Position numbers and translations under genes: made by a program. Shown here one piece after another: positions 14,190 to 44,270 of a DNA stretch of 64,000 bases. Under the pieces are notes generated by a model, which searched no databases, was not told the origin of the DNA, and saw only the letters and a program-made list of their open reading frames with translations. Source of the DNA: Nitrospirota bacterium (GTDB lineage Bacteria > Nitrospinota_A > UBA7883); NCBI GenBank assembly GCA_024275315.1, contig JAJRZK010000009.1, forward strand, positions 1-64,000, read 5' to 3'. Numbering within the stretch: the first letter of the stretch is position 1; every line of letters starts with the position of its first letter.

Positions 14190-14192
14190 GGT

Positions 14193-17712: not shown

Positions 17713-17730
17713 ATATGATTTAAGTCATAT
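17713..17730. promoter_or_regulatory. Palindrome A, candidate Crp/Fnr-family site upstream of nirS
   Basis: ATATGA-N6-TCATAT, perfect in six bases per arm with spacer TTTAAG, about 100 bases upstream of the nirS start. It shares the core TATGA-N6-TCATA with three other sites near nitrogen-oxide and heme-protein genes. The half-site spacing equals that of Crp/Fnr-superfamily operators. Confidence 0.7.
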
Positions 17731-17917
17731 CTTTGAACTTTTCTATCTTATTTGGCCTGAAATCATACTGGAACCGCTTTTAGGGACCCATCCACGGTCA
17801 AGGTGGTTTTGCCTGCCCATGAACTTGGCATGTCGATTATCATCCTGCTCTGTTAACCTGAGGTCAGCTGAGAACATGCCGGGTCCGGGCCATGTGACTT
17901 GAAAAGATTGGATCAAA

Positions 17918-17933
17918 CATGACTTTTGTCATA
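17918..17933. promoter_or_regulatory. Palindrome B, candidate Crp/Fnr-family site upstream of the NO reductase operon
   Basis: CATGA-CTTTTG-TCATA, one outer mismatch from the shared core but with an extended perfect inner dyad ATGAC-TTTT-GTCAT. It lies about 125 bases before the first small-subunit gene. Confidence 0.65.
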
Positions 17934-18056
17934 TATAGAGAGGCGCCTATCCGGTTAAATAACATCGCGGGGAACCTTAAGGGTATGTCTGTGCGATATT
18001 GCAGGCGTGCACAGATCGGTATAGTCTTTAAAATTTTTTATGGAGGGGGAATTCCT

Positions 18057-18236
18057 ATGACAGAAGAATCCCAAGCTCAAGAAAGTGGCGGGAAGCCAGC
18101 TTCCTATTGGGAGGTTTTTTATGACGACATTTTTCTGCTTTTTTTCCTGAGTATAGCGATATTGTATATCTCCTATACTGTTTGGGGTCTGATGGAGCTT
18201 GGCACCGTCGATCCTTCGCCACTTCTGAAACCATAA
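18057..18236 (+). CDS. Small membrane subunit of the CuA heme-copper reductase
   Basis: This 59-residue protein has one transmembrane helix at about residues 25-45 (DIFLLFFLSIAILYISYTVW), a polar N-terminus and a short proline-containing tail. It is preceded by TGGAGGGGG at a good distance from ATG 18057. It is the first gene of the unit and lies 31 bases before the CuA subunit, so it is probably an accessory subunit of the reductase, comparable in size to the single-helix subunits of other heme-copper enzymes. I do not recognise a named family. Confidence 0.75.
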   Translation: MTEESQAQESGGKPASYWEVFYDDIFLLFFLSIAILYISYTVWGLMELGTVDPSPLLKP

Positions 18237-18267
18237 CATAACAACCATAAATGAAGGGGGACGGTAA

Positions 18268-18798
18268 ATGAGTGTAACTTCGCCACAACCTGGTTGGTGG
18301 AACACTCCACTTCACAAAGAGGAGAAAATTTGGATCACCATAGCGTTCGTATGGTGCATCCTTATAACTTTGGCGATGCCTGCCTGGCATCTTTTCGGAA
18401 CACAAAACGCGGCGTCTGAATATTACAAGATATCAACGGAGGATTTTGGCTTCCTGACCGACGCTTTTATCGAGAAATATACAGTGGGCGAGGATTCGGG
18501 AGTCCCGGTCGTAGCCCCTCCCGCCGGCGCAGATATTTTTCTTCGCGGGCAACAGTGGGGATGGGATCCTGTCCTCAAGCTGAAACAGGGTTCGACCTAC
18601 AGGCTTCATCTTTCGTCTGTTGACGTGAACCACTCCATGTCCCTGTTGCCTATGAACATGAATTTTAAAGCGGTTCCGGGATGGGATAACGTATTGACGA
18701 TCACTCCTACGTCCAGCGGGAGTTTCAATCTAATCTGTAATGAATTTTGCGGCATCGGGCACCACTCGATGAACGGCAAGATTATAGTTGATTCCTAA
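18268..18798 (+). CDS. Heme-copper reductase subunit II with CuA site
   Basis: This 176-residue protein has a single N-terminal transmembrane anchor at about residues 22-44 and a cupredoxin domain at about 80-176. The CuA motif is complete: C157, E159, C161, H165 and M168 in CNEFCGIGHHSMNG, with the upstream histidine in VDVNHSMSL. The domain faces the periplasm and takes electrons from a cytochrome c or cupredoxin. The one-helix layout resembles B-family (ba3-like) subunit II rather than two-helix A-family subunits. Its partner subunit I starts 15 bases downstream. ATG 18268 follows a GAAGGGGGA ribosome-binding site. Confidence 0.92.
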   Translation: MSVTSPQPGWWNTPLHKEEKIWITIAFVWCILITLAMPAWHLFGTQNAASEYYKISTEDFGFLTDAFIEKYTVGEDSGVPVVAPPAGADIFLRGQQWGWDPVLKLKQGSTYRLHLSSVDVNHSMSLLPMNMNFKAVPGWDNVLTITPTSSGSFNLICNEFCGIGHHSMNGKIIVDS

Positions 18799-18813
18799 GG
18801 AGGGGGTGTGACA

Positions 18814-20328
18814 ATGGCATCAGGCAATTTCAGGACTTGTCCTACGACGGGGTTTAAAATACATATCCCCGCGCAGACTTTGATACAAACGAACGCCGTG
18901 ACGGCGATCGTGTTTCTTCTTGTCGGTGGCATCCTCGGGCTGGGGATGGTTCTCACCAGATGGCAGGCGGTTCATCTTCTTAACGACGAGTGGTTTTACA
19001 GGCTACTCACTCTCCACGGTATCGCAATGCTTGTGGCGTGGATCATTTTCTTCGAGATGGCCGTGCTCTATTTCGCCAGCGCTATCGTTTTAAGCAGCAG
19101 ACTCGCCGCCCCCTGGGCCGGTTGGTTGCAATATGTGTTAATGCTCGGCGGCGCGGCCCTTACGGCAGTCCAGATACTGCTGGGCAACGCGGACGTCATG
19201 TTTACTTCATATGTGCCGTTGCAGGCGAATCATCTTTATTATCTTGGTATTATTCTTTTCGCCGTCGGGGCGATAGTTGGTTGTATAGTTTTCTTTGCGA
19301 CCCTGGTCGTGGCCAAGACCGAAGGCACCTACAAGGGCTCTTTGCCCCTGGTAACTTTCGGCGCCGCCGCGGCGGCTATTATCGCTATAGCCACTCTTTC
19401 TCACGGCGCGATCGTTTTTATACCGACGTGGCTGTGGGCGGCGGGGATCATCCCGATGATGGACGCGGAGGTTTACCGCCTTTTGTTCTGGGGATTCGGT
19501 CACTCCTCCCAGCAGATCAACGTGTGCGCCATGGTATCCGTCTGGTACCTGTTGGGCACATTGACTGTCGGAGCGAAACCGATGAACGAGAAGGTATGCC
19601 GCACAGCGTTTGTTTTCTACATACTGTTCATCAACATCGCTTCTGAGCATCACCTTTTGACCGACCCGGGTCTTTCGGCCGCTCACAAAACCTGGAACAC
19701 CGGCTACTTCATGCACCTGGCGGTTCTGGCCAGCATGATCCACGCCTTCTCCATTCCCGGTTGTATAGAAGTGGCTCTTCGCAAGAAAGGGTATACGAGG
19801 GGCGCGTTCGAGTGGCTCAAGAAAGCCCCGTGGGGCAACCCCGGCTTTTCAGCGCTGGCGCTTTCCCTTTTTGGGTTTGGTTTTCTGGGCGGCATCACCG
19901 GTGTTGTTTACGGCACGGAGCAGGTCAACATAATCGCCCATAACAACCTGAGAATCCCGGGTCACTTTCACGCTACCGTGGTGGCGGGAACCACCCTGGC
20001 GTTCATGGGTATCACTTACTACGTTCTGCCTCTTATTTTCCGCCGTGAGGTGGCGTTCCCGGGGCTGGCCAAGCTTCAGCCGTATATTTTCGGTATTGCC
20101 ATGTATGTCGTGAGCGTTTCCATGATGTTCGCCGGCGGTTTCGGCGTATCGCGCAGAAGCTGGGACATGAACGGGGTGGACGGGCCTTTCCAGGTCAACT
20201 TTGGCCCCATCGTCGACATGGCGCTTGCCATAATGGGTATCGCTGGCGTCGTAGCCTGCATAGGCGGTGCGATGTACTGCATAATCGCCGTTGCGACGTT
20301 GCTTATCGGCAAAAAAATCGAGGCGTAA
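18814..20328 (+). CDS. Heme-copper reductase subunit I lacking the catalytic tyrosine (probable CuA nitric oxide reductase)
   Basis: This 504-residue protein has about 12 transmembrane helices. Low-spin heme ligands are H68 (TLHGIAM) and H386, the high-spin ligand is H384 (GHFHATV), and the copper ligands are H230 (FGHSSQQ) and the pair H279/H280 (ASEHHLL). In oxygen reductases the residue four after the first copper ligand is the cross-linked Tyr; here it is Gln234. Loss of that Tyr is typical of nitric oxide reductases in the superfamily, and the nirS neighbour points the same way. Together with CuA subunit II it resembles the non-canonical eNOR/sNOR-type groups, not cNor or qNor. An oxidase with a relocated Tyr cannot be excluded. 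ATG 18814 is favoured because GGAGGGGG at 18799-18806 is correctly spaced. Confidence 0.85.
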
Positions 20329-20353
20329 AGCCGGTTTAAAAGAGGAGTTACGT

Positions 20354-20479
20354 ATGTCACATAATCCTGATCACGCGCCGAAAGGCTCGTTTATCATAAT
20401 TATGATTTTCTTTGTTTGCTTTGTGCTGTTTTATCTGCTGAACTGGAAATACCTTACGGATGTATGGATAGTCGGCTAG
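20354..20479 (+). CDS. Small membrane subunit (IIa-like) of the heme-copper reductase
   Basis: This 41-residue protein has one transmembrane helix at about residues 12-32 ([19 protein letters not shown]) and a short charged N-terminus with His residues. AGAGGAG precedes ATG 20354. It is the last gene before a strong terminator. Its size and place after subunit I resemble the subunit IIa of ba3-type enzymes; homology cannot be shown at this length. Confidence 0.75.
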
Positions 20480-20500
20480 ATTGAAAGATCAGCAAATACG

Positions 20501-20535
20501 CCGACCGCCCCTTCGTGGGCGGTCGGTTTTTTTTT
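20501..20535 (+). terminator. Rho-independent terminator of the CuA reductase operon
   Basis: A perfect 10-bp G/C-rich stem (20501-20510 with 20517-20526) with a CTTCGT loop, followed by nine T residues. It ends the reductase unit 22 bases after the last small subunit gene. Confidence 0.95.
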
Positions 20536-20590
20536 ATCCAAGCCGACACCGTCCGCGAAGTCCTTAAATATCAATATAAAAATCAATCAT

Positions 20591-20606
20591 TATGATTTTC
20601 GTCATA
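20591..20606. promoter_or_regulatory. Palindrome C, candidate Crp/Fnr-family site upstream of sco-cytochrome b
   Basis: TATGA-TTTTCG-TCATA, a perfect match to the shared core, 74 bases before ATG 20680 and directly after the terminator of the reductase operon. It indicates that the SCO-cytochrome b genes have their own co-regulated promoter. Confidence 0.7.
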
Positions 20607-20679
20607 CAGAACTGATATTCGGTGATGTATCAAATTTGTATGGAAGTAATCTGATTATTTGCTTATCGCGGTATTTGTT

Positions 20680-21486
20680 ATGCGCCATTGTGTAGTATGT
20701 GTTGTTTGGTGCGTTGTGGCTTGCATATTCCAGGCAGATGACGCCGGCGCGATATCCGCTATCGAAAAGTCCCAGGCCTCCGTCGGGAAAACCGTCCGTA
20801 ACTACCGGCTTATAGACCAGGACGCCAGCTTTTTCGCTTTTTACAGCCTGAAAGGCAAACCGGTGCTTCTTACCTTCATTTACACCGAATGTCCGGGCCC
20901 GTGCCCCCTCATATGTGAAAGTATAAAAGCAATACATGAATCCATGGGACCGGAGTTGACCGAACAAATCTGGACTGTCGCGGTCAGTTTTGATCCACTA
21001 AACGACACTCCCGGACGACTTAAAGAGTTCGGGCTGGAGTTTGTGGATAATTTTGACAACTGGATTTTCGCCACCACCGATTATGACACTCTCGAGATGA
21101 TGGTCGACGATCTCGGTTTTCGGTTTGACAGAAATGAAAACGGCTTCGAGCATATGAACCGGTTGACGCTGATAGGGCGGGATGGCGTTGTGCTGAAGCA
21201 TTTTTATGGCACGGAGTACGATGTCAAGAATGTGGAAGACGCCGTCCGGTCAGCCCTGGAGGGGCGCACCATCAAAAGCGCCATTGCCGATTCATTCGAT
21301 TGGGCTTTGCTTTATTGTTCCAATTACGACCCGGCTACCAAAACCTACAAAATCGACTATCTTTTCGTTTTTGCCGTAATCGCCCAATATATTTTGATAG
21401 TAGGCACACTACTGTTTATTTTCCGGAAAAAAATCTGGGTATTTTTCTCGCATTTATTCAAACGAGGCTTTAACAATGTCAATTGA
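20680..21486 (+). CDS. SCO1/SenC-type copper chaperone with C-terminal membrane anchor
   Basis: About 268 residues. An N-terminal signal or anchor (about residues 3-20) precedes a thioredoxin-like SCO domain at about 30-190. The copper-binding cysteines are in ECPGPCP (C-x3-C) and the third ligand histidine is in the FEHMNRLTLI segment. A second transmembrane helix is near the C-terminus (about 225-250), as in SCO proteins of oxidase operons in several phyla. SCO proteins deliver copper to, or reduce, the CuA site of subunit II, so it probably serves the CuA reductase upstream. It overlaps the next gene by 11 bases. A TTG at 20659 is an alternative start. Confidence 0.88.
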   Translation: MRHCVVCVVWCVVACIFQADDAGAISAIEKSQASVGKTVRNYRLIDQDASFFAFYSLKGKPVLLTFIYTECPGPCPLICESIKAIHESMGPELTEQIWTVAVSFDPLNDTPGRLKEFGLEFVDNFDNWIFATTDYDTLEMMVDDLGFRFDRNENGFEHMNRLTLIGRDGVVLKHFYGTEYDVKNVEDAVRSALEGRTIKSAIADSFDWALLYCSNYDPATKTYKIDYLFVFAVIAQYILIVGTLLFIFRKKIWVFFSHLFKRGFNNVN

Positions 21487-23125
21487 TGAAACCAAGGACC
21501 CGGTGGCAAAGGCGCACAGGAAAGCTCCGCCAAGATCAAAGCAAACCAACCGTCTGATTCCCTGGGCCTTAAGACCTGGAAATACGATTCTTGTCTCCGT
21601 ACAGGAAATGTTCAACCGGTTTTTTACTCCAACGCTAAATCCTTTGTATTACCTGGGCGCTATCACATTTCTCCTGTTCTGGGTGGTGCTGGCTTCCGGT
21701 ATATATCTGTTCCTTTTCTATGATATGAGCTCCCATGGGGCGTACGAATCGGTCAGGCACATTACCCAGGACCAGAAGTATTACGGTGGTATCATGAGAT
21801 CACTTCACCGGTACGCCTCAGACGGGCTGGTGATAGTTATTCTCATTCATATGGCGCAGGTCTTTTTCTCTGACCGGTTCCGGCGCTATCGCTGGGTGGC
21901 GTGGGTCACGGGTGTGGTGATCATTCCAATAATTTGGTTTGAAGGTATTTCCGGTTATGTGCTGGTATGGGACCAGGCGGCCCAGGTAATGGCTCTTATT
22001 TTCGCTGATATACTGGACATTCTTCCGATAAATTCAGAGCCGATTCCCAGCTATTTTCTGACAAACGAGTCGGTCCATATGCTTTTTTTCGTGCTTAACT
22101 ATTTGCATGTGGCCATACCTTTCTTGCTTTTGATAATGGCGTGGGTGCATTGCATGCGGATTTCCATGCCCCTGATCAATCCTCCCAGGCAGGTGACTGT
22201 TGTCATATTGCTGTCGCTACTTGGCCTGTCATTGGTAAAACCGGCCGTAAGCGGCGCCCCGGCGGATCTATCCACCCTGGTGGGGCAGGCTCCTGTCGAT
22301 TGGTTTTTCGTTCCCTTTTTTCCCTTGGTCAGCGGCCTGAGCCTGTCGCCTGAAATGGTTTGGGTGTACGGCGGGATAGGATTTGCTCTTTTCACTTGCC
22401 TGCCGTGGCTGGTGCCGGAGCCGAAAAAACACAAGCAAACCGGATCATCGGTAACCCAATGCGTGGTGAATGTGGATCTTGAAAGTTGCAAGGGTTGTGT
22501 ATTATGCCAGCAGGCGTGCCCTTTCGAGGCGATGAAAGTTGTTCCGAGAACGGATGGAGAGCCGTACGAGCAGCAGGCGGAGGTTGTCCCGACAAGGTGT
22601 GCGGAATGCGGCTTTTGCGTTAACGCGTGCGAATTCAACGCGGTTTCCATGGGCGAATGGAGCAAATCGGCGTTCCAGGACCATATCGAATCCCTGCTCC
22701 AACCCGAATCCTCCGGCAATGGTTCCTCTGCAAAACCCAGCGTCATCGTATTCGTATGCGAGCGAAGTTTTGATCAGGAAAAGTTTTTCAATCCGAAAAA
22801 GACACGACTGGCCCATAACGAGGAAATCGCCTCCATGACGATACCTTGCATAGGCGTTGTCAGTCCCGCGATCGTCGATTACAGCATATCGGCGGGGGCC
22901 AAAGGGATAATCGTGGTAGGTTGCCGGGGCCTTGATTGTCACTACAGGGAAGCCCGCCGCCGCCTTGCGTTTACGGATAACTCCTCTATTTCCTACAGAT
23001 TTCTCGTGGAAAAGATGGATGAGCCGAACGTCAAGATCATGCTGGTCTCACCATTCGATGTGGATTCGACGATAAAGGAGATCGACGAATTCAACGAGCT
23101 GATAAAATCAAATAACCTGGCCTAG
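21476..23125 (+). CDS. Cytochrome b fused to two-cluster ferredoxin and MvhD-like domain
   Basis: This 549-residue fusion has an N-terminal cytochrome b/b6 domain at about residues 45-235 with bis-His heme pairs H111/H125 and H211/H225, and extra helices to about 312. A 2[4Fe-4S] ferredoxin domain follows, with C338-C341-C344-C348 and C375-C378-C381-C385. The C-terminal domain at about 420-545 resembles the delta subunit of methyl-viologen-reducing hydrogenase (MvhD/FrhD): cysteines C428, C458, C483 and C488 lie in VFVCERS, IPCIGV and VVGCRGLDCHY. It likely moves electrons between the quinone pool and cytoplasmic low-potential carriers, perhaps Hdr-like partners, none of which is in the window. 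No Rieske or cytochrome c1 gene is nearby. Confidence 0.87.
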   Translation: MSIDETKDPVAKAHRKAPPRSKQTNRLIPWALRPGNTILVSVQEMFNRFFTPTLNPLYYLGAITFLLFWVVLASGIYLFLFYDMSSHGAYESVRHITQDQKYYGGIMRSLHRYASDGLVIVILIHMAQVFFSDRFRRYRWVAWVTGVVIIPIIWFEGISGYVLVWDQAAQVMALIFADILDILPINSEPIPSYFLTNESVHMLFFVLNYLHVAIPFLLLIMAWVHCMRISMPLINPPRQVTVVILLSLLGLSLVKPAVSGAPADLSTLVGQAPVDWFFVPFFPLVSGLSLSPEMVWVYGGIGFALFTCLPWLVPEPKKHKQTGSSVTQCVVNVDLESCKGCVLCQQACPFEAMKVVPRTDGEPYEQQAEVVPTRCAECGFCVNACEFNAVSMGEWSKSAFQDHIESLLQPESSGNGSSAKPSVIVFVCERSFDQEKFFNPKKTRLAHNEEIASMTIPCIGVVSPAIVDYSISAGAKGIIVVGCRGLDCHYREARRRLAFTDNSSISYRFLVEKMDEPNVKIMLVSPFDVDSTIKEIDEFNELIKSNNLA

Positions 23126-23148
23126 TGTCACGATAGGGAATATTTACA

Positions 23149-23673
23149 ATGGATAATGAGAGACTTTCGCTACCGGCGATATTAATTCTTGTGGCGCCGG
23201 TTTTGTTGATCGGTTTTTTTTCCACCTCTCCGGCTTATGAATATAACAAGCCGGACGATTCGATGTTGATTGTTTCTTTCAAGAAATCGACTATGCGGCT
23301 TACACTGTGCACCCAGGAGGAGTTGAAAAAATTCAAGGCCGTCGCCAAGAGCAGGCGAAAACATATGCAACGCGCCTCCAGGGTGTGCGGAAGCCGCGAA
23401 CGTGCGCCCCTGGCCCTTACAATCTGGCTGGATGGTAAAAAGGTGACGGATAAACACATCTTCCCGTCAGGGCTCCGCAATGACGGGCTTGTGTTTGTAT
23501 ATGACCGGTTCAAGCTTCCAAAAGGAAATCATAAAGTGAAGATAAACATCAGCGACCATAGAAAAGATGGGAGCGGTGAAGCGGTGTCATTCTCTGAAAA
23601 CATAAAATTTGCCGAGCGTGAAGTCGTGGTGGTGGAGTATGACAAGGGAAGCAATAAACTGTTTGTATACTAA
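23149..23673 (+). CDS. Membrane-anchored periplasmic protein after the cytochrome b fusion
   Basis: This 174-residue protein has one N-terminal hydrophobic segment at about residues 8-28 ending near a cleavage-like SPAYE, then a beta-rich domain. Two cysteines (C53, C80; LTLCTQEE and SRVCGSRER) could form a disulphide. The segment with APLALTIWLDGKKVTDKHI followed by FKLPKGNHKVKINISD reads like a small immunoglobulin-type or PEGA-like beta domain, but I do not recognise a named family. It starts 23 bases after the cytochrome b fusion, in the same unit, so it may be a dedicated accessory protein of that complex. Confidence 0.65.
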   Translation: MDNERLSLPAILILVAPVLLIGFFSTSPAYEYNKPDDSMLIVSFKKSTMRLTLCTQEELKKFKAVAKSRRKHMQRASRVCGSRERAPLALTIWLDGKKVTDKHIFPSGLRNDGLVFVYDRFKLPKGNHKVKINISDHRKDGSGEAVSFSENIKFAEREVVVVEYDKGSNKLFVY

Positions 23674-23689
23674 CCCATGATCGCCCCGG

Positions 23690-24142
23690 ACCTGTCGCGC
23701 TATCCATGTCGGGGTTGACGACGGCGGGATCCGCCGTCGATTACGGCGTTCCTCCGCTGGAAGGATTGTGGGAGGCCGACGATATGAACGCGTTTACCTC
23801 CTCGCGCCGGATGGGTGGAAGTGGACGCTGATGATCATGCAACCGACGTTTATCACTAAAAATATATTCAAAGAAGCGCTGAAAATTACGAAAGACAAAA
23901 AAGGTCCGCCCGCGCTCGACAGCATACGGTTTGAAAGCTGCAAAGAGGGAAAGTCGGCGCAGATAACGCACATCGGCCCCTATGCCGACAAAGACCCACT
24001 ATGAAGCGTATACACTATTTTTCTAAAGGATAACAGTTTAATCCCCTCGGGCAAGCATCATGAGATATACATCAGCGATCCCCGCAAGACAGCGCCGGAA
24101 GAAATGAGAACTGTCCTTCGCCAACCTGTAAAAAAAGGATAA
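23690..24142 (+). pseudogene. Decayed GyrI-like small-molecule-binding domain gene
   Basis: Pieces of one protein are spread over different frames. VDYGVPPLEGLWEADDMNAF is read in the frame that ends at TGA 23829. KWTLMIMQPTFI through the FESCKEGKSAQITHIGPYAD segment is read in the frame of 23768-24004. MKRIHYF is in a third frame, then SGKHHEIYISDPRKTAPEEM and VLRQPVKKG end at TAA 24140. Joined in order, these match the GyrI-like domain family (ligand-binding relatives of the Rob/SbmC C-terminus). At least three frameshifts and the loss of the N-terminal third show it is dead. It probably plays no role in the adjacent respiratory genes. Confidence 0.8.
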
Positions 24143-24203
24143 AAACAGCCGGCCTGATTTTATTGCGCAGCTTCGCCCATCAGGATCGTCTGGTTCGACA
24201 CGC

Positions 24204-26096: not shown

Positions 26097-26423
26097 TGAT
26101 TTTGATTGCTCGAAAGGTTAATGAAAATCGGTTCATTATACCGCCATAACGCATTTTACCAATCAACAAAAGCCCCACGGGGGGCGCCACGGGGGCGTAC
26201 GGACCGCACGCAAATGTTCCTGCTATGCGCGGCCCACACAAGGTTCCACGTGCGATCTGGCGAAACAGGGCGCCACTCGAGCCCAACGTAAGGTATAATC
26301 CTTAGTGACAATGCCCAGTGGCGAATCAAAACCCACTAATTTGGTTGGAAGTCTTTACTTGTAACATAGAAACGCGAGCCGAAGACGATTCGGACAACCA
26401 CAAAACGCCAGGTTCCGGTTTAT
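26097..26423. other. Intergenic gap before the glycosyltransferase genes
   Basis: A gap of about 327 bases between divergent genes. It holds a G/C-rich stretch with GGGGGCGCCACGGGGGCG near 26178 and a TATAAT at 26294-26299 without a recognisable -35. I see no gene or strong terminator. Confidence 0.5.
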
Positions 26424-27374: not shown

Positions 27375-27430
27375 CTGCGTGTTTCAGGTTTTCATATCCG
27401 GACACCACCATGTAATTTGAATCGGGGTTT

Positions 27431-33310: not shown

Positions 33311-33424
33311 CTAACCGCTCCAGGGGGCTCGGTCATTCAGACCGGGCCTCGCCTATTATATAACGCCCGCCAACAGTACGATGCCCGACGGCAAGAATCC
33401 CATTATGATCAAAGCGGGAAAAAC

Positions 33425-33721: not shown

Positions 33722-33830
33722 TTTACTCCCCAGACCGAGTTGATCTTAAATATCTGGATAGTGATACCCAAACTTGAAGCAAAAGGCAACAGATTTTTTC
33801 CCGCCCGATTCGCTTCCGGAAAGCCTTCTT

Positions 33831-36850: not shown

Positions 36851-36935
36851 AAGTCGGCCTCTGAAAGCGTCGGGTTTTATCCATGATAATTACCGGTAAT
36901 CGCATGTGATAGATATTTATAATTAAAGCTCGGTT

Positions 36936-37787
36936 TTAGCGCAAGCTTTTTGCCTGTTTCGCCTGTTTGACGCTGGAGAGAACCGCCCTGCACTTCCGGT
37001 CCAAATCGGGAGGAAACGTCGGCAGAAGAGTTGATGCGGCGAGCGTCAGGGTGTGGGTCTTGTCCCATGGGAGAATATACACCTTCGCTGTAACCCTCTG
37101 TTTGCCGACCGGTGTGGAATTCACGAAGGCGTATCCCTCACGTGACCCGGCCTTCAGCGATTCCCTCCTGGAAGAAATCGCCGGGTTCGTCAGCGTTTTG
37201 GCCACTTTTTTCATCATAGCCGCCATGGGGATTCTCAAAAGCTGAATGGTCAGGTTTTCCGTCGGTTGCGGTATCCCGGCTTCGTAATAGTGGACAAGCT
37301 GATCCATTTCATAGTCGGTCGATTTCTTGCCGCGTTTTCCCGCCAGAAACTCCACGTTGGAGACCCATCCGGCGGGAACCTTGAACTCAAACCCCTTGCG
37401 GCGAACGGTTATATCCACGGTTTTGTCATCCAGCCGTGAATAATTCGCGACCGGCTCGCCCTCCCTTTTGAACATGAGCTTGTCTTTCTTAAGCCACAGG
37501 CCCACTTTTTCCACCCGCCCCTCGGAGTGGTTGTTGACAAAGTTTATGACGTATCTGTACTGATTGCCCTTGACTGGGACCAGGCGTCCATGTATCGTTT
37601 TTTTCCCCTCCAGGAGGATCAATTTTCCTCGGCGAACGATCAGACGGTCTGATGCGGATTCCGATCCGTCAAGCCGCCATGCGCCGGAAAAATCGACCCT
37701 GCGGGCGCCATGCGCCGAGGAGGCGAAAGCCGGGTAAACCCCGGAGAATAAAACAAGAGCGGCAAGCAATGATCCGATTTTGGTCAT
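36936..37787 (-). CDS. Hypothetical secreted protein
   Basis: This 283-residue product starts at ATG 37787 (the same frame is open to 37901 without a signal-like start). It has a clear signal peptide ending in PAFA near residue 21. Two parts follow: a beta-rich segment with DFSGAWRLDGSES and MFKREGEPVANYSRLD, lipocalin- or DUF-like, and a C-terminal part (about 130-283) with VPAGWVSNVEFL and HTLTLAASTLLPTFPPDLDR, reminiscent of PsbP/MOG1-fold domains. I do not recognise a specific family. It is divergent from hisG and downstream of guaB by an unrelated direction; no functional link is apparent. Confidence 0.6.
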   Translation of the reverse strand: MTKIGSLLAALVLFSGVYPAFASSAHGARRVDFSGAWRLDGSESASDRLIVRRGKLILLEGKKTIHGRLVPVKGNQYRYVINFVNNHSEGRVEKVGLWLKKDKLMFKREGEPVANYSRLDDKTVDITVRRKGFEFKVPAGWVSNVEFLAGKRGKKSTDYEMDQLVHYYEAGIPQPTENLTIQLLRIPMAAMMKKVAKTLTNPAISSRRESLKAGSREGYAFVNSTPVGKQRVTAKVYILPWDKTHTLTLAASTLLPTFPPDLDRKCRAVLSSVKQAKQAKSLR

Positions 37788-37960
37788 GGAACAGTTTTTA
37801 CTAGATATTGAACAAAAAAGCAAAGATTTCACCAGGAGATCCTCAAGCCGCCCGGGCCAGGGAACGGATGAATATACCGCGCGACAGAAATAATTTCCCA
37901 CAAACCATTTACTATGCGTACCCTGTTGGGTATCATTAATGTTTTGCTGGAATATGGAAA

Positions 37961-38896
37961 ATGAGCTACGGAAAGAAAGATAACAAGCTGTATATTGGCA
38001 TACCTTCCGGAAGCCTTAACGAGCAAGTGGTGCGGTTGCTTGAAAAATCGGGCAGGCCTGTCGTAAAGGGGCGCCAGTACGAGCTTTCCACCCCTTATGA
38101 CGACGAGGTCATCTTCCGCATACTCGACAGGAAGGAGATGCCGGCCAAAGTGTCGCAGGGAATAGTCGATTGCGGCATCACGGGCAAGGATTATATATTC
38201 GAAGCCGGCATGGAAGACAAGGTGGAGGTGATCGGCGACTTTATCTTTTCCAAACGGACCAACCAGCCTTCGCGGCTGGTGCTTGCCACCAGGCCCGAAA
38301 AGGGCATCGAGAAGCCGGAGGACTGCCGGGGCAAAACCATCGCCACCGAACTTCCCAACCTCACCCGCCGCAGGATGGAGGAGCTTTACGGGGTCGGCGA
38401 TGTGAAAATTCTTCGTAGCGAAGGGAAAACCGAGGCCAAAGTTTTCATGGGCGAATCGGATGCGTTTACAGACATCACGGAGACAGGCAGGACCTTGAAG
38501 GATAATGGAAACATTATCGTCGCACAGCTCTTCGAGTCCAACCCGCAGCTTATAGCCAATCCAGACGCTGTGAAAGACAAGTTCATGCTGGACAAGATGG
38601 ATGATATCCGGGTGGGAATAGAATCCGTGCTCCAGGCGGAAAAAGAGCCGGTATACATGGTGTTCATGGATGTTCCCGTCAATGTGCTGGGTTCGGTTGA
38701 AGACATGCTCCCCGCCATAGTCTCCCCTACCGTAAGCCCCGTTGTCAGGGATGATTGGGTGAGCGTGTCGGCTGTTATCAGGGAAACGGAACTGAACCTT
38801 TTGGCGCCAAAGCTCCTGAGGATGGGTGTGGAGGGTATCGTGCCTATTCCTGCGCCGAAAGTATTCTCGCAAAATATGGTGAAAAAAAGAGTCTGA
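37961..38896 (+). CDS. hisG: ATP phosphoribosyltransferase, long form
   Basis: This 311-residue protein is a long-form HisG: two periplasmic-binding-protein-like catalytic lobes (about residues 10-215, with IGIPSGSLNEQVVRLLEKSG and GITGKDYIFEAG, and the PRPP loop ESDAFTDITETGRTL) and a C-terminal regulatory domain (about 230-305, with the late PKLLRMGVEGIVPIP) that binds histidine. It carries out the first step of histidine synthesis. The product of the next gene acts later in the pathway; the other his genes are not in the window. Confidence 0.95.
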   Translation: MSYGKKDNKLYIGIPSGSLNEQVVRLLEKSGRPVVKGRQYELSTPYDDEVIFRILDRKEMPAKVSQGIVDCGITGKDYIFEAGMEDKVEVIGDFIFSKRTNQPSRLVLATRPEKGIEKPEDCRGKTIATELPNLTRRRMEELYGVGDVKILRSEGKTEAKVFMGESDAFTDITETGRTLKDNGNIIVAQLFESNPQLIANPDAVKDKFMLDKMDDIRVGIESVLQAEKEPVYMVFMDVPVNVLGSVEDMLPAIVSPTVSPVVRDDWVSVSAVIRETELNLLAPKLLRMGVEGIVPIPAPKVFSQNMVKKRV

Positions 38897-38939
38897 CACG
38901 ATCAATACATCTGCGCAAAGCGCTTGGAGGGTTGAAAAA

Positions 38940-39335
38940 TTGGATAAAAAGGCGATTGAAGAGGGAACCGAGCTTGGTATAAATTTCGCCAAACGAGGCG
39001 GGTTGGTCCCGACCGTCGTTCAGGATGTGTCCGATGGCCGGATTCTCATGATAGCCTACGTTAACGAGGAAGCGTTTTTAGAGACCATGAACTCCGGCAT
39101 GGCGACTTTCTGGTCTACCTCCCGAAACGAGCTCTGGAAAAAGGGGGCCACATCTGGAGATTTCCTGAAGATTGTCGGTGTCCTGACCGATTGTGATCAG
39201 GACGCGCTTGTATACCGGGTGGAGCCGCAGGGGGCGGGAGCGTGCCATACAAAGGACCCGGCGTCAGGCGTGGCGAGAAAAAGTTGCTTTTACAGGGAAA
39301 TAGACTTGCAGAAAAAAAAGCTTGTCCATTTATAA
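38940..39335 (+). CDS. hisI: Phosphoribosyl-AMP cyclohydrolase
   Basis: This 131-residue protein has the metal-binding motifs of HisI: AYVNEEAFLETM, FWSTSRNELWKKGATSG, DCDQDALVYRVEP and the late ACHTKD followed by a SCFYR segment. It opens the purine ring of phosphoribosyl-AMP, the third histidine step. The TTG start at 38940 is supported by GGAGG at 38926-38930, nine bases upstream. It follows hisG by 43 bases. Confidence 0.93.
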   Translation: MDKKAIEEGTELGINFAKRGGLVPTVVQDVSDGRILMIAYVNEEAFLETMNSGMATFWSTSRNELWKKGATSGDFLKIVGVLTDCDQDALVYRVEPQGAGACHTKDPASGVARKSCFYREIDLQKKKLVHL

Positions 39336-39370
39336 GCTTCTGTTCTTAATTTTTGCGGAAACCTGTAAAT

Positions 39371-39754
39371 TCAACTTTTGTCCACACTGAATTTCCCGGG
39401 ACCAGCCGCCATGACCAACAACAACCCCCCCGCCAGACCCAGATTTTTTAACGTGTGGATTATCTGTGCCTTGGAGCCAAAGTCAAAATGAAAAAAATAT
39501 GTGGCCGGCGCCAGGTATATCAATAGAGCCAGCGCCGCCAACCGGGCTCTCCAGCCTATGACAAGACTTGCGCTCCCAACGCCCAATACCGCTATAACGA
39601 CCGCATACGCCAGCCCGGGATAAGCGATCCCCGCAGACTCAATTTTATGTATCGCCGCAGACGGGTTGATAATCTCGACTATGGCGGACCAGATGAACAC
39701 GGCCGAAATAAACAACCTTCCAAGAAGCTTGAACAGGTTTTCGAATCTAACCAT
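39371..39754 (-). CDS. DoxX family membrane protein
   Basis: This 127-residue protein has four predicted transmembrane helices. The N-terminal FKLLGRLFISAVFIWSAIVE, the central GVGSASLVIGWRARLAALAL and the C-terminal LKNLGLAGGLLLVMAAGP follow the DoxX pattern. DoxX proteins are small inner-membrane proteins with loose links to redox or thiol metabolism; the role here is unknown. It converges with hisI. Confidence 0.85.
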   Translation of the reverse strand: MVRFENLFKLLGRLFISAVFIWSAIVEIINPSAAIHKIESAGIAYPGLAYAVVIAVLGVGSASLVIGWRARLAALALLIYLAPATYFFHFDFGSKAQIIHTLKNLGLAGGLLLVMAAGPGKFSVDKS

Positions 39755-39800
39755 GGCCAGACACTACCAGAAAAAATGCGCTCATGTTGCAATACCCGTC

Positions 39801-39840
39801 AAATCCGGATAGCTAACGAGGAAAACCGCCTTCCGGATTT
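39801..39840. repeat. 9-bp inverted repeat upstream of the nuclease gene
   Basis: AAATCCGGA (39801-39809) and TCCGGATTT (39832-39840) form a perfect inverted repeat with a 22-base spacer, next to a CATATAATTATATATG stretch. It may be an operator or simple dyad; no relation to the TATGA-N6-TCATA sites. Confidence 0.35.
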
Positions 39841-39978
39841 CATATAATTATATATGAATAATAGCAAAAGATTATTGAAATAAGCTAATTGAAGCTATAA
39901 AATGCGGTATTTGCTGATAAAGTGATCGGAAGAACTGTATTCAGCAATCGGATGTTCCCAATAAACGAATTAAACGGC

Positions 39979-40569
39979 ATGATTTTATTTCCAGGCAATA
40001 CACAGTCAAACGCTTCTGGCGCGTCAAACGCTGGATTGTCGAGGTTGTTGTCGCTGGTCATGGTTTTGCAATTGTCGGGATTTACGGTCACCGCGCTCGC
40101 CCAGGACACCCAGGATCTGGTCTGGGGCAAGGTAATCCAGATTTACGATGGCGATACCATCGCCATAAAAAGCGACCGGAACAAGGTCATCCGTGTACAA
40201 CTCGCCTATGTGGACGCGCCGGACAAGGACCCCAAGACAGGAAAAACACAGCCGCTTCACGACGAATCGCTCAAAACTCTCAAGGATATGATAATCGGCA
40301 AGGAAGTTATCATCGAATCGATGGGAACCGACAAGTTTAAAAGGATCGTGGGAATTATTTTCCTTGACAAGCTTAACATCAACGCCGAAATGGTTAGAAA
40401 AGGAATGGCTGAGATCTATTATCCTGTACGTATGAACCCTTCGAGGTATAACGAAAACTACGTCAATCTGCTCAAAACGGCCGAATCTCAAGCCAAAAAC
40501 AGCAAGACAGGTATTTGGGACCATCCTGGCTACGTCTCACCCTATAAATTCCGTCGAGGGAGCAAATAG
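39979..40569 (+). CDS. Thermonuclease (SNase-like) family protein
   Basis: Up to about 196 residues from ATG 39979. The start is uncertain because the frame is open to 39922 and a compact signal peptide (LLSLVMVLQLSGFTVTALAQ) begins near 40042. The mature domain shows the SNase pattern: VIQIYDGDTIAIK, AYVDAPDKD, FKRIVGIIFLD and ENYVNLLKTAESQAKNSKTG. Catalytic Arg and Asp positions appear present (VQLAYVDAPD; RIVG; YDGDT). It would be a secreted, calcium-dependent nuclease. It lies upstream of ahbC with a terminator between. Confidence 0.85.
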   Translation: MILFPGNTQSNASGASNAGLSRLLSLVMVLQLSGFTVTALAQDTQDLVWGKVIQIYDGDTIAIKSDRNKVIRVQLAYVDAPDKDPKTGKTQPLHDESLKTLKDMIIGKEVIIESMGTDKFKRIVGIIFLDKLNINAEMVRKGMAEIYYPVRMNPSRYNENYVNLLKTAESQAKNSKTGIWDHPGYVSPYKFRRGSK

Positions 40570-40607
40570 CCCGGCGTACCCGTCGTGGGTCCGGGGCGGT
40601 ATTTTTG
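40570..40607 (+). terminator. Probable terminator after the nuclease gene
   Basis: CCCGG-x3-ACCC pairs with GGGT-CCGGG around a five-base loop, with a three-base bulge, and TATTTTTG follows. The bulge weakens it. It would separate the nuclease from ahbC. Confidence 0.5.
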
Positions 40608-40725
40608 TTTCCCCAAGAAACGCTTGCCAGATTTCAGAACGTAATGTTAGTCTAGTTATTATTGCTGGTGGTCACTTGATACCCGCCATGTTTTAATCAC
40701 CTCGTCATTTTACGGAGGACAATAG

Positions 40726-42012
40726 ATGATTGGCATATCCGCCTTGTATTGCAGCACGGAAAACGAAGGCGACGCCATACGATACGGCAAGCAGTCCCAC
40801 GGCATGAAGGCGCGTCCGAACGCGCATACCGTTCCGAAGTCCGCCGCAGAGCGCAGGCCCGTGACCGCATGGAACATCACGCGCACTTGCAACCTTAAAT
40901 GCGTCCACTGCTACAGCAACTCTGAGGAAAAAGCATATAGCGGCGAGTTGACGACGGACGAAGGCAAAAACCTGATAACCGACCTGGCCGGGTTCAATAT
41001 CCCCGCATTGCTTTTTTCCGGTGGGGAGCCATTGGTACGCAAGGATATCTGGGAGCTTGCCGAACATGCGAAAAAAGAGAAGCTTCGCCTTACTCTTTCG
41101 ACAAACGGCGTCCTTATCGACGAGCAAACCGCCAGAAGAATAAAGGATATAGGTTTTACATATGTAGGTATCAGCCTTGACGGTATCGGCGCGGTTAACG
41201 ACAAGTTCCGTGGCAAGAGCGGAGCTTTTAAAAAGGCCATGCGCGGATTTAAAAACTGCGTCTCTGTCGGCCAGAAAGTAGGGTTGCGGATGACGCTGAC
41301 CCGTCATAACTTTGAAAACCTGCACGAAATTTTCGATTTCATCGAAGCAGAAGAGATACAGCGGGCCTGTTTCTATCACCTTGTCTATTCCGGCAGGGGC
41401 GAGGGGATATCGGACGAGGACCTGACCCATGAAGAGACCCGTGGCGCAATGGACATCATACTGGAGCGCACCGAGGATTTTCACAAGCGGGGCCTTAACA
41501 AGGATATCCTGACAGTCGACAATCATGTGGACGGGCCATACATGTACCTCAAGTTGCTGGAAAAAAATGAAAAACAGGCCGAGGAGGTCAAAAAATCGTT
41601 GGAATGGAACGGGGGCGGAAGATATTCGTCCGGCGTTTCTTTCGCCGATATCGACTTTTTAGGCAACGTGCACGCGGACCAGTTCTGGATGCACTACACC
41701 TTTGGCAACATAAGGGAGCGCCGGTTTAGCGAAATTTGGCAGGACACCTCCGATAAGCTGATGAACATCCTGAAAAACAGGCTGGACAACCTCAAAGGTA
41801 AATGCACGAAGTGCAGATTCCTGATGATGTGCGGCGGCAGTTTGCGAGTCCGGGCGGACCTGGTATATTCCGATCCATGCGCCCCGGACCCGGCTTGTTA
41901 CCTGACGGATGAAGAGTGCGGCATATCACCGGCCGACCGTGCGGAGCTGAAATCCCGCGGAGAGGATTTTCCCGTGCCGGAGCGTCTTTTGGCGAAATCA
42001 ACCGCGGTTTAA
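40726..42012 (+). CDS. ahbC: AhbC-like radical SAM enzyme (NirJ1-type)
   Basis: This 428-residue protein has radical SAM cysteines C55, C59 and C62 in CNLKCVHC, a SGGEPLVRKD motif, and C-terminal SPASM-type cysteines in CTKCRFLMMCGG and DPACYLTDEECG. It shares HLVYSGRG and DNHVDGPYMYLKLLEKN-type segments with the NirJ protein at 13011-14189. Next to the AhbD-like gene it most likely is AhbC, which removes two acetates' carboxyls from didecarboxysiroheme to form iron-coproporphyrin III in siroheme-dependent heme synthesis. A role in d1 synthesis cannot be excluded. ATG 40726 follows TACGGAGGACAATAG. Confidence 0.8.
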   Translation: MIGISALYCSTENEGDAIRYGKQSHGMKARPNAHTVPKSAAERRPVTAWNITRTCNLKCVHCYSNSEEKAYSGELTTDEGKNLITDLAGFNIPALLFSGGEPLVRKDIWELAEHAKKEKLRLTLSTNGVLIDEQTARRIKDIGFTYVGISLDGIGAVNDKFRGKSGAFKKAMRGFKNCVSVGQKVGLRMTLTRHNFENLHEIFDFIEAEEIQRACFYHLVYSGRGEGISDEDLTHEETRGAMDIILERTEDFHKRGLNKDILTVDNHVDGPYMYLKLLEKNEKQAEEVKKSLEWNGGGRYSSGVSFADIDFLGNVHADQFWMHYTFGNIRERRFSEIWQDTSDKLMNILKNRLDNLKGKCTKCRFLMMCGGSLRVRADLVYSDPCAPDPACYLTDEECGISPADRAELKSRGEDFPVPERLLAKSTAV

Positions 42013-42060
42013 GGGACTTCATCCCTTTCCGTTTACCCGCTCTATCTAAAGAGAAGCAAT

Positions 42061-43263
42061 ATGCCACATCCATCGAAACCCAATGATTCCAACCCTTCAG
42101 ACGAAAAACGCAAGGGGACGATCAAGCAAGTCTATCAATCCATAAAGGACAAGGACGATGGCCACAGCCACGCCCGCAAATTCATGATGAAAGACCAGCT
42201 TCGGCTGGTGTTTTGGGAGACAACAGCCGGTTGCAACTTAGAATGCGTTCATTGCCGCCGTCTCGACGTGGCCCACGAAATGATGAAAAGCGACCTTACC
42301 ACGGAACAGTCGAAACAGTTAATGGACAATATAGCCGCCGAGTCGAAATGCATCCTGGTGCTCTCCGGCGGGGAACCCCTTTTTCGGCCGGATATTTACG
42401 AGTTGGCGGAATATGGCCATTCTATAGGGTTGACCATGGCGCTTGCCACAAACGGCACTTTGGTGACCCACGAAGTGGCGCAAAAGATCGTAGACGCGAA
42501 GATACAGAGAGTATCCATATCGCTGGACGGCGCCTCCGCGCAAACTCATGACAAGTTCCGCAATCTTCCCGGCTCCTTCGAGTCTGCCATGCGGGGTCTT
42601 AAAAACCTCCAGGCGCTGGGCATGGAGACCCAGATAAACTCCACGATAGCAAAACACAACGTGCACGAGGTCAAACAGCTATACCAGAACGCCATAGACC
42701 TGGGTGTCGAGGCGTTGCACATTTTCATGCTGGTGCCTGTGGGGTGTGGTGTGAAGATCGCTGATGACGCCATGCTCGAAGCGGAGAAATACGAGGAAGT
42801 GCTCAACTGGTTCTACGAGATATCCAGAGAGGGTAAAATCCAGACAAAAGCCACCTGCGCCCCTCATTATTTCCGCATAATGCGGCAACGGGCCAAAAAG
42901 GAGGGTATAACCATATCTCCGAAAACCCACGGCATGGCCGCCATGACCAAAGGGTGTCTTGCGGGGCAGAGTATCTGTTTCATCTCCCACAAAGGGGAGG
43001 TGTTCCCCTGCGGTTACCTGCCAGTAGAGGCTGGCCACGTGCTAAAACAGCCATTTACGGAGATATGGAACAAGTCGCAGGTGTTCACCGACCTGCGCGA
43101 CCAAGACAAACTGGGCGGTAAATGTGGCGTGTGCGAATATAAAAAGGTGTGCGAAGGATGCCGTGCCCGCGCCTTTTTCGACACACAGGGAGACTATATG
43201 GCAGAAGAGCCGTACTGCATTTACGAGCCCACGAGTATCAAACAGGCGCTGGACGGAAAGTAG
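42061..43263 (+). CDS. ahbD: AhbD-like radical SAM heme synthase
   Basis: This 400-residue protein has radical SAM cysteines C58, C62 and C65 in CNLECVHC, the leading FWETTAGC stretch, SGGEPLFRPD, and a C-terminal cluster CGVCEYKKVCEGCRARAF followed by AEEPYCIYEP, closely matching AhbD. AhbD oxidatively decarboxylates the two propionates of iron-coproporphyrin III to heme b. It lies 48 bases after ahbC in one unit. Together they supply heme anaerobically for the many heme proteins of this region. AhbA/AhbB and siroheme genes are not in view. Confidence 0.88.
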   Translation: MPHPSKPNDSNPSDEKRKGTIKQVYQSIKDKDDGHSHARKFMMKDQLRLVFWETTAGCNLECVHCRRLDVAHEMMKSDLTTEQSKQLMDNIAAESKCILVLSGGEPLFRPDIYELAEYGHSIGLTMALATNGTLVTHEVAQKIVDAKIQRVSISLDGASAQTHDKFRNLPGSFESAMRGLKNLQALGMETQINSTIAKHNVHEVKQLYQNAIDLGVEALHIFMLVPVGCGVKIADDAMLEAEKYEEVLNWFYEISREGKIQTKATCAPHYFRIMRQRAKKEGITISPKTHGMAAMTKGCLAGQSICFISHKGEVFPCGYLPVEAGHVLKQPFTEIWNKSQVFTDLRDQDKLGGKCGVCEYKKVCEGCRARAFFDTQGDYMAEEPYCIYEPTSIKQALDGK

Positions 43264-43267
43264 CGTA

Positions 43268-43286
43268 CCAACCCGGCCCGGGTTGG
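43268..43286 (+). repeat. Hairpin after ahbD
   Basis: CCAACCCG (43268-43275) pairs with CGGGTTGG (43279-43286) around a three-base loop, five bases after the ahbD stop. No T-run follows directly, so it may be an mRNA-stabilising hairpin or a weak terminator. Confidence 0.45.
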
Positions 43287-43314
43287 CGCCGTTACAGTGA
43301 AACGTCAGCGCGGA

Positions 43315-43351
43315 ACAAAAAAAACCCCCGAAAGCGCATGGCCTTCGGGGG
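43315..43351 (-). terminator. Terminator for the secreted monoheme-type gene
   Basis: On the minus strand CCCCCGAA and TTCGGGGG (43344-43351 with 43325-43332) form an 8-bp stem with an 11-base loop followed by eight T residues. It lies 26 bases beyond the minus-strand stop codon. It could also stop transcripts coming from ahbD. Confidence 0.85.
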
Positions 43352-43377
43352 CGGTTGGCGAAACCGGTGTTACGCGG

Positions 43378-43875
43378 TTATCTTATTTCCCTGTTTCCGC
43401 AGACATAACCAACGCACACACCATCAAAAGAGGCGTGACATTTTGCGCAGGTTTCAGGGTTCAGCGGGTGGCCGGGCTCGCTTGAAGCGATTGATGTGCC
43501 ATCCGATATCTTCAAAACATTGTAAATCGGCTTGCCATTCTTGTGGTCAGTGGCGAAGACAGCGTCGATTGAAGGGAAAATCAAAACTGCGGTTTTCCCA
43601 TCGGGATAATACTTGGCTTGCGCTTTGTAAGCCTTCATGGCTTTGGGATTAATCTTCGAAGTGTACGACCCCGGCTTGATACCACAATAAATATCAACGG
43701 TCTCCTGCAGGATATCATCGCCGCCAAGCGGCAGAACGTTCACGCCACAATCAGGCATGGGACCCTTGGCCTTGCCTTCAGCCCAGTTGTCCCAGTAATT
43801 ACCGGCGAAGCTTGGACCTGCGGTACCCATAAGGAACAAGGAAAAAATCGTGAGTGTAAAAAAAGCTTTCTTCAT
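43378..43875 (-). CDS. Secreted protein with a C-terminal heme c motif (CxxCH)
   Basis: This 165-residue protein has a signal peptide (about residues 1-24, ending SFAGN). One heme-attachment motif, CAKCHASFDG, is near residue 145, followed by two more cysteines in GVCVGYVCG. The middle part (about 35-130) has beta-like segments and two cysteines. There is no obvious cytochrome c fold around the motif, so it may be a heme- or metal-binding relay protein in the periplasm. I do not recognise the family. A perfect TATGA-N6-TCATA palindrome lies 178 bases upstream of its start. Confidence 0.7.
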   Translation of the reverse strand: MKKAFFTLTIFSLFLMGTAGPSFAGNYWDNWAEGKAKGPMPDCGVNVLPLGGDDILQETVDIYCGIKPGSYTSKINPKAMKAYKAQAKYYPDGKTAVLIFPSIDAVFATDHKNGKPIYNVLKISDGTSIASSEPGHPLNPETCAKCHASFDGVCVGYVCGNREIR

Positions 43876-44270
43876 GTCTCCCCCTCGTAAAAATCATTTA
43901 GTCGACCCGATAAACCTTGAATAATCATGGTTTATACCATAATATTGGACGAAAAATGTATCCCATTCCCCGGTCCGGCGATTTGGGAAAAACCTTTTCT
44001 CCCCCGCCCTACAATACTATCGCGTTTTATAGCGGCAATGGGCGCCTGCCGCTATGATAAAAGTCATAAAATGACCATCCAGATATCGCTTCTAACTATG
44101 GTAAATGCGCAATCACAGTTTGACCAAAAATCCTTAAAACCAAAATCATGATCGTTTTTCCTAGACGGAGCGTTTTGTTGTTAATATAATTATACGTTGA
44201 TGGAATGTGTCAAAATAGCAGGCGGTTATTGGTCGCGTAACTAACAAAATTATAAAAGATCATTCTAATT
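43876..44270. other. Intergenic gap before the pilB-like gene
   Basis: A gap of about 395 bases, A/T-rich, between divergent genes. It contains palindrome D (44053-44068) and no credible gene. An ATCATGAT dyad is near 44146. Confidence 0.6.
44053..44068. promoter_or_regulatory. Palindrome D, candidate Crp/Fnr-family site
   Basis: TATGA-TAAAAG-TCATA, a perfect match to the core seen at palindromes A and C and, with one mismatch, B. It lies 178 bases upstream of the secreted heme-motif gene and about 200 bases upstream of the pilB-like gene. The heme-protein gene is the likelier target. Confidence 0.6.

What the first reader, a model, noticed from the sequence alone, without database searches (positions are those of the whole stretch)
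17713..44068. A shared 16-bp palindrome, TATGA-N6-TCATA, marks a putative nitrogen-oxide regulon
Four dyads share this core: 17713-17730 (nirS), 17918-17933 (NO-reductase operon, one mismatch), 20591-20606 (sco-cytochrome b) and 44053-44068 (near a secreted heme-motif gene 23 kb away). Three are within 140 bases of a start codon. Half-site geometry is that of Crp/Fnr-superfamily operators, but the core differs from the usual TTGAT-N4-ATCAA. I found no clear further copy by reading the window.
Basis: partly seen in the sequence, partly recalled or inferred. Interest (0 to 1): 0.82.

Follow-up and report, generated by a model that had tools for sequence, protein, structure and literature searches.

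The report
Nitrospinota Crp/Fnr nitrogen-oxide regulon operator
A short DNA palindrome repeated in front of nitrite- and nitric-oxide-handling genes of a Nitrospinota bacterium is very probably the docking site of one Crp/Fnr-type gene switch encoded elsewhere in the same genome, and it differs from the docking site used by the standard denitrification switches.

Summary
TATGA-N6-TCATA is exact at 17714-17729, 20591-20606 and 44053-44068, with one mismatch at 17918-17933. TATGAYNNNNRTCATA has 7 exact copies in the genome, 6 intergenic. One lies between a Crp/Fnr gene (P0001, another contig) and a divergent COX1-like gene. Across the order the palindrome recurs upstream of orthologs of nirS, an sNOR-like oxidase operon, sco-cytochrome b, the 43378 heme-motif gene and the regulator/COX1-like pair. 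A relative in which no regulator was found lacks clear sites. Several Gammaproteobacteria and Magnetococcales nirS loci carry the classic TTGA-N6-TCAA box instead. In 35 of 50 site-gene pairs a -10-like hexamer starts 21-22 bases after the palindrome (0 of 5000 shuffles reach this), the spacing of a class II activator. The regulator has no invariant Cys, His or Met in its sensor domain, and Phe and Glu at CRP positions 180 and 184 of a recognition helix invariant across the order. This is a probably autoregulated Crp/Fnr regulon with a non-standard operator: a new variant of a known kind. Binding, activation and the signal (presumably NO or nitrite) are inferred, not shown.

The parts
17714..17729 (.). 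Operator palindrome of nirS (TATGATTTAAGTCATA); 101 bases before the nirS start
   Evidence: conserved upstream of nirS in 7 of 8 order genomes with nirS
17686..17691 (-). -10-like hexamer GACAAT for nirS, 22 bases after the palindrome
   Evidence: weak match (4 of 6), position supported by the pattern over 50 sites
16005..17612 (-). nirS, cytochrome cd1 nitrite reductase
   Evidence: Cytochrom_D1 E 2.7e-123 plus cytochrome c domain
17918..17933 (.). Operator palindrome of the sNOR-like oxidase operon (CATGACTTTTGTCATA)
   Evidence: 11-12 of 12 positions in 9 of 11 order genomes with the operon
17955..17960 (+). -10-like hexamer TTAAAT for the oxidase operon, 21 bases after the palindrome
18057..18236 (+). 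Small one-helix membrane protein, first gene of the operon
   Evidence: same small gene in relatives
18268..18798 (+). CuA-type oxidase subunit II (NorS-like)
   Evidence: COX2 E 6.9e-07, CoxB E 5.8e-14
18808..20328 (+). B-family heme-copper oxidase subunit I (NorY-like); the stretch aligned to HPIVY of ba3 is HSSQQ
   Evidence: COX1 E 5.1e-61; ba3 alignment
20500..20535 (+). Terminator-like hairpin that ends the oxidase operon
   Evidence: 11-pair stem followed by a T run
20591..20606 (.). Operator palindrome of the sco-cytochrome b operon (TATGATTTTCGTCATA)
   Evidence: present upstream of sco in 6 of 11 order genomes
20628..20633 (+). -10-like hexamer TATCAA for sco, 21 bases after the palindrome
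20659..21486 (+). SCO1/SenC protein
   Evidence: SCO1-SenC E 1.1e-14
21476..23125 (+). Cytochrome b fused to 4Fe-4S and FlpD-like domains
44053..44068 (.). Operator palindrome of the 43378 gene (TATGATAAAAGTCATA)
   Evidence: present upstream of its ortholog in 7 of 8 order genomes
44026..44031 (-). -10-like hexamer TATAAA for the 43378 gene, 21 bases after the palindrome
43378..43875 (-). Secreted protein of unknown family with a CAKCH heme motif; probable regulon member
   Evidence: No Pfam or NCBIfam match; ortholog sits beside the sco/cytochrome b genes with its own operator in G008/L083

Best explanation
The palindrome is the operator of one Crp/Fnr-family regulator, P0001 (G000 contig C36:17209-17907). 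As a homodimer it binds TATGAY-N4-RTCATA centred near -41.5 and recruits RNA polymerase (class II activation) at nirS, the sNOR-like oxidase operon, sco-cytochrome b and the 43378 cytochrome-like gene. It also binds between its own gene and a divergent COX1-like gene, so it is probably autoregulated. The signal is most likely NO or nitrite. Shown here: the sites, their conservation gene by gene, the spacing to -10-like hexamers, the single credible regulator with a site at its promoter, and its invariant unusual recognition helix. Inferred: binding, activation, the signal and the enzyme activities. Confidence about 0.85 for a P0001 operator regulon, 0.8 for class II activation at most targets, 0.6 for NO or nitrite as the signal.
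For: Seven exact copies of TATGAYNNNNRTCATA, 6 intergenic; 3 of the 4 copies outside the window are intergenic, p about 0.002. One gene passes the HTH_Crp_2 cut-off and has a copy 125 bases before its start. Orthologous promoters carry 11-12 of 12 positions across the order. G004, in which no regulator ortholog was found, keeps the oxidase operon and COX1-like gene but has no clear site there. A -10-like hexamer starts 21-22 bases after the site in 35 of 50 pairs, against 11% at other offsets and at most 14 in 5000 shuffles. Recognition segment FEVVER is invariant in ten orthologs. The second Crp-like gene (C20) scores below the Pfam cut-off and has Lys where CRP has Glu181.
Against: No binding or expression data. 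Four of ten order genomes have no site before the regulator gene itself, and G009 lacks sites at nirS, the oxidase operon and the 43378 gene. The -10 rule fails for the regulator's own promoter (1 of 6) and is weak for the COX1-like gene (4 of 11). Site-gene pairs from related genomes are not independent. Genome-wide counts are raised only about threefold over other phyla.
Confidence: 0.8

Rival explanations
1. Same regulator and operator, but the regulon answers low oxygen or general redox state rather than nitrogen oxides; the sNOR-like enzyme would be a high-affinity terminal oxidase.
For: In Nitrosomonas europaea the sNOR genes rise in oxygen limitation and an oxidase role has been proposed (PMC6967387). 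The sensor domain gives no direct hint of NO.
Against: nirS is among the most consistently sited targets. The regulator lacks the FNR cysteines. The oxidase has HSSQQ where ba3 has HPIVY, so the tyrosine normal for oxygen reduction is absent.
Confidence: 0.25
2. The palindrome is bound as described, but P0001 represses these genes.
For: The COX1-like/regulator sites do not follow the -10 spacing; many Crp/Fnr proteins repress at some promoters.
Against: At nirS, oxidase, sco and 43378 promoters the spacing is that of class II activation, where the site takes the place of the -35 box.
Confidence: 0.1
3. A different transcription factor binds the palindrome; P0001 is only adjacent to one copy.
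For: Four order genomes lack a site before the regulator gene, and binding is untested. G010 has sites with no regulator found (73% complete genome).
Against: TGA-N6-TCA geometry is that of Crp/Fnr dimers; P0001 is the only family member over the cut-off; presence and absence of sites follow the regulator.
Confidence: 0.07
4. The shared palindromes are chance, helped by base or codon composition.
For: The looser 14-mer ATGAY-N4-RTCAT is common in coding DNA: 39 exact, most inside ORFs.
Against: Gene-by-gene conservation, co-occurrence with the regulator, A/T in 99% at the unselected spacer centre, and the fixed -10 distance.
Confidence: 0.01

Closest known systems
DNR/NNR and NnrR regulons of denitrifying Proteobacteria (PMC1274295)
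   Same: A Crp/Fnr-family regulator controls nir and NO-reductase-type genes through a TGA-N6-TCA palindrome
   Different: Operator half-site TATGA instead of TTGAT-type; Phe at CRP position 180; no invariant His in the sensor domain; not closer to DNR than to CRP by sequence
HcpR regulons (PMC1274295; HcpR structure PMC12750200, PDB 9DAY)
   Same: Cysteine-free-type Crp/Fnr regulators of nitrogen-oxide stress, with operators that vary together with the recognition helix
   Different: Published HcpR motifs are TGTGA-, TTGAC- and GTAAC-type; targets centre on hcp; Met68, the proposed heme ligand, has no invariant Met counterpart here
DnrT of the Thermus thermophilus nitrate respiration element (PMC5748679)
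   Same: Cysteine-free Crp/Fnr activator of denitrification genes and of its own operon; a Thermus Crp/Fnr protein next to a GAF protein and nitrate reductase is among the nearest plasmid relatives (31%)
   Different: 31% identity only; different recognition helix; no GAF partner found beside P0001
norSY-senC (sNOR) cluster of Nitrosomonas (PMC6967387)
   Same: CuA subunit II, B-family subunit I and a SCO/SenC protein encoded together
   Different: Here sco is in a second operon with a cytochrome b/ferredoxin fusion and has its own operator

Membership tests
Crp/Fnr superfamily (P0001) | Cyclic-nucleotide-type sensor fold plus Crp-type helix-turn-helix | tested here: met
   PF00027 E 4.1e-23 and PF13545 E 2.1e-18, both over cut-off
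Crp/Fnr superfamily (operator) | Palindrome with TGA-N6-TCA core | tested here: met
   Positions 3-5 and 12-14 invariant in 50 site instances (sites were selected for 11 of 12 matches)
FNR (iron-sulfur type) | Cluster-binding cysteines | tested here: not met
   0 or 1 Cys in the sensor part, none invariant; far below the NCBIfam Fnr cut-off (67.8 of 228 bits)
CRP (cAMP type) | Over the curated CRP cut-off; Arg-Ser of the phosphate-binding cassette | tested here: not met
   81 of 266 bits; PYPA(S/T) in place of that segment
DNR/NnrR | FNR-like operator TTGAT-N4-ATCAA | tested here: not met
   Operator is TATGA-N6-TCATA
DNR/NnrR | Phylogenetic placement with DNR or NnrR | tested here: inconclusive
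   DNR structure 56 bits against 61-63 for CRP and 95 for actinobacterial relatives; no tree with named DNR/NnrR was made
DNR/NnrR | NO sensing through heme | not testable with these tools
   No invariant His or Met, which does not exclude heme
HcpR | Control of hcp | not tested
   hcp was not searched for; P0003 carries an Hcp-associated disulfide domain (TIGR03980)
sNOR (NorSY-SenC) | CuA subunit II, B-family subunit I, SCO/SenC nearby | tested here: met
sNOR (NorSY-SenC) | NO reductase activity | not testable with these tools
   Only indirect: ba3 HPIVY is HSSQQ here
Class II (-41.5) activated promoters | -10 hexamer about 21-22 bases after the operator | tested here: met
   35 of 50 pairs; 0 of 5000 shuffles; not met at the regulator's own promoter

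The most novel reading that the evidence does not exclude
Nitrospinota have their own lineage of Crp/Fnr nitrogen-oxide regulator with a distinct operator code: Phe180/Glu184 (CRP numbering) with TATGA half-sites. In the sister family f6 the helix is FEVAVR (FEVVVR in one genome) and the regulator/COX1-like site becomes a hybrid TTGAY-N4-RTCATA, so protein and operator changed together. Its sensor would work unlike FNR clusters or His-ligated heme.
Probability: 0.45. Interest if true: 0.55.

Novelty: new variant of a known kind. Interest (0 to 1): 0.45.

Why it matters
Nitrospinota matter for nitrite turnover, and to my knowledge no nitrogen-oxide regulator has been described for them; a full-text search of the held library found no paper with this motif. 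The finding names the regulator, its operator and a compact target list, and so links uncharacterised genes (the 43378 cytochrome-like protein, the COX1-like/DUF1858 protein) to nitrite and NO metabolism. It also adds a case (TATGA with Phe180/Glu184) to the known relation between recognition helix and operator in this family, testable with one gel-shift series.

Tried and rejected
(2) The looser 14-mer ATGAY-N4-RTCAT is swamped by coding matches: 39 exact, most inside ORFs; the backwards-pattern control underestimates that background and is not used. (3) Exact copies in a motA-like gene (C10:49738) and in a large ORF (C50:20868, without the Y/R ends) are taken as chance; C21:44985, between an ETF-like and a YrdC/Sua5-like gene, is undecided. 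(4) The Alginate_exp porin (C10:6903) has a good site, but it recurs at only one other order ortholog (G001, 11 of 12): possible own-genome member, not core. (5) In family f6, nirS, oxidase and 43378 orthologs have no such site, except G021's oxidase operon. (7) Palindrome as an RNA hairpin: not pursued, since the fixed spacing to -10-like hexamers points to DNA.
Full report
OBSERVATION. The palindrome is present as described: exact at 17714-17729, 20591-20606 and 44053-44068, one mismatch at 17918-17933. A terminator-like hairpin with a T run at 20500-20535 separates the oxidase operon from the sco operon, so the 20591 site belongs to its own promoter.

GENOME. The window lies in a 2.9 Mb, 63-contig genome. 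Named contigs that encode its closest nirS relatives are mostly Nitrospinota metagenome bins. TATGANNNNNNTCATA has 8 exact copies. TATGAYNNNNRTCATA has 7, with 0 for the reversed control, and 6 of the 7 are intergenic. With a coding fraction of about 0.92 (estimated on the window), 6 of 7 has a binomial probability of about 2e-6. In 55 genomes of other phyla the pattern occurs at 0.33 per Mb; in the ten order genomes with the regulator it occurs at 1.07 per Mb. The count is raised only about threefold; the location carries the argument.

REGULATOR. Only one gene passes the HTH_Crp_2 cut-off: P0001, 232 aa, C36:17209-17907. One exact copy (C36:17068-17083) lies 125 bases before its start and 86 bases before a divergent COX1-like gene (P0002), which is followed by a DUF1858/TIGR03980 protein (P0003). 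P0001 falls far below the NCBIfam cut-offs for CRP, FNR, FixK and NtcA and is no closer to the DNR or HcpR structures than to CRP (9DAY is HcpR). In ten orthologs of the order the recognition segment F194-E-V-V-E-R199 is invariant. Aligned to CRP (S-R180-E181-T-V-G184-R185, from my own knowledge) this puts Phe at 180, Glu at 181, Glu at 184 and Arg at 185. Rodionov et al. (PMC1274295) found that residue 180 tracks one base of the half-site: Arg with the G of TGTGA, Ser or Pro with T. Here the base is A and the residue is Phe, a pairing not mentioned in the passages I read.

CONSERVATION BY ORTHOLOG (500 bases upstream, best match to 12 informative positions, shuffled controls). COX1-like gene: 11-12 of 12 in all ten order genomes with the regulator, 11 in G010, 9 in G004. 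Regulator gene: 12 of 12 in six of ten. nirS: 11-12 in seven of eight (not G009). Oxidase operon: nine of eleven (not G009, G004). sco: six of eleven. 43378 gene: seven of eight (not G009). G010 has sites without a detected regulator, but is only 73% complete. In G008 (and the matching contig L083) the 43378 ortholog sits beside the sco/cytochrome b genes with its own operator, which ties that remote gene to the cluster.

OTHER PHYLA. In nirS loci of Gammaproteobacteria and Magnetococcales, TTGA-N6-TCAA boxes lie near nirS in several (L092, L094, L095, L097, L098, L102), and no TATGA box was found upstream of nirS there. The Nitrospinota box looks like a replacement of the usual one at a related gene cluster. 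Several loci show neither box.

HOW IT LIKELY WORKS. Counting from the 3' end of the palindrome towards the gene, a hexamer with at least 4 of 6 matches to TATAAT begins at offset 21 or 22 in 35 of 50 site-gene pairs. Other offset pairs give 11% on average and 20% at most. None of 5000 shuffles reaches 35; the maximum is 14. This puts the centre near -41.5, the class II activator position (established knowledge of CRP/FNR promoters). It holds for nirS (7 of 8, counting the second G008 site), the oxidase operon (9 of 10), sco (6 of 6) and the 43378 gene (7 of 8), weakly for the COX1-like gene (4 of 11), and not for the regulator itself (1 of 6). Pairs from related genomes and shared divergent sites are not independent, so the shuffle count overstates significance; the pattern by gene is the better guide. 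The spacer centre (positions 8-9) is A or T in 99%, a feature not used to select sites.

SIGNAL. There are no FNR-type cysteines and no His, Cys or Met that is invariant in the sensor domain. PYPA(S/T) replaces the segment that holds the cAMP-binding Arg-Ser in CRP. NO or nitrite is inferred only from the targets. Among the nearest annotated plasmid-borne relatives are Thermus proteins, one beside a GAF protein and nitrate reductase, the DnrS-DnrT arrangement; DnrT is a cysteine-free, oxygen-insensitive activator (PMC5748679). The 'NO reductase' is best called sNOR-like: CuA subunit II, B-family subunit I and SCO, as in norSY-senC. Whether sNOR reduces NO or O2 is debated (PMC6967387). That HPIVY of ba3, with the cross-linked Tyr, is HSSQQ here argues against an ordinary oxygen reductase.

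HELIX AND OPERATOR CHANGE TOGETHER. In family f6 (same class) the segment is mostly FEVAVR (FEVVVR in G020), and the site between regulator and COX1-like gene is a hybrid: TTTGATAAAAGTCATA (G018, G012), GTTGACGAAAATCATA (G016), GTTGACAAAAGTCATA (G020), ATTGACGAAAATCATA (G015), ATTGACAAATATCATT (G013). Other f6 targets carry no TATGA box, except G021's oxidase operon. This looks like co-evolution, but rests on one promoter per genome.

VERDICT. It is a Crp/Fnr regulon of nitrite/NO-type genes with a non-standard half-site, now with a candidate regulator and cross-genome support: a new variant of a known kind.

Noticed in passing
L004 440-1414 (G000 C36:16007-16981): The COX1-like protein P0002 and the DUF1858/TIGR03980 protein P0003 are two ORFs here, but one ORF of about 325 aa in G001 and G007: a real split, or a frameshift in this assembly.
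   Followed up: partly
G000 contig C15, about 7.5-60 kb: Matches on C15 come in mirrored pairs (7538/60160, 15804/51894, 18201/49497; start plus partner end is always 67713), so the contig holds a long inverted duplication, perhaps an assembly artefact.
   Followed up: no
L153 389-2464 (G001 C32) and L121 (G016 C97): Exact TATGAYNNNNRTCATA copies lie just upstream of a chemoreceptor gene in G001 (MCP signal domain) and upstream of a gene that looks like a chemoreceptor in G016: chemotaxis may be a regulon member in some species.
   Followed up: partly
window 11051-11755: Protein without a Pfam match whose look-alike relatives sit just before the oxidase operon in G002, G005 and G009; function unknown.
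   Followed up: partly
window 8452-10881: PAS/GAF hybrid histidine kinase with receiver domain on the same strand next to the nir/heme-d1-type genes.
   Followed up: no
window 11777-15917: Two further cytochrome d1-type proteins (11777-13087, 14193-15917) and a radical SAM/SPASM protein (13011-14189) follow nirS on the same strand, probably heme d1 maturation and NirN/NirF-like genes.
   Followed up: partly
window 40726-43263: Two ORFs that look like radical SAM proteins by eye (CNLKCVHC, CNLECVHC) lie next to the 43378 gene on the other strand; not searched against a library.
   Followed up: no
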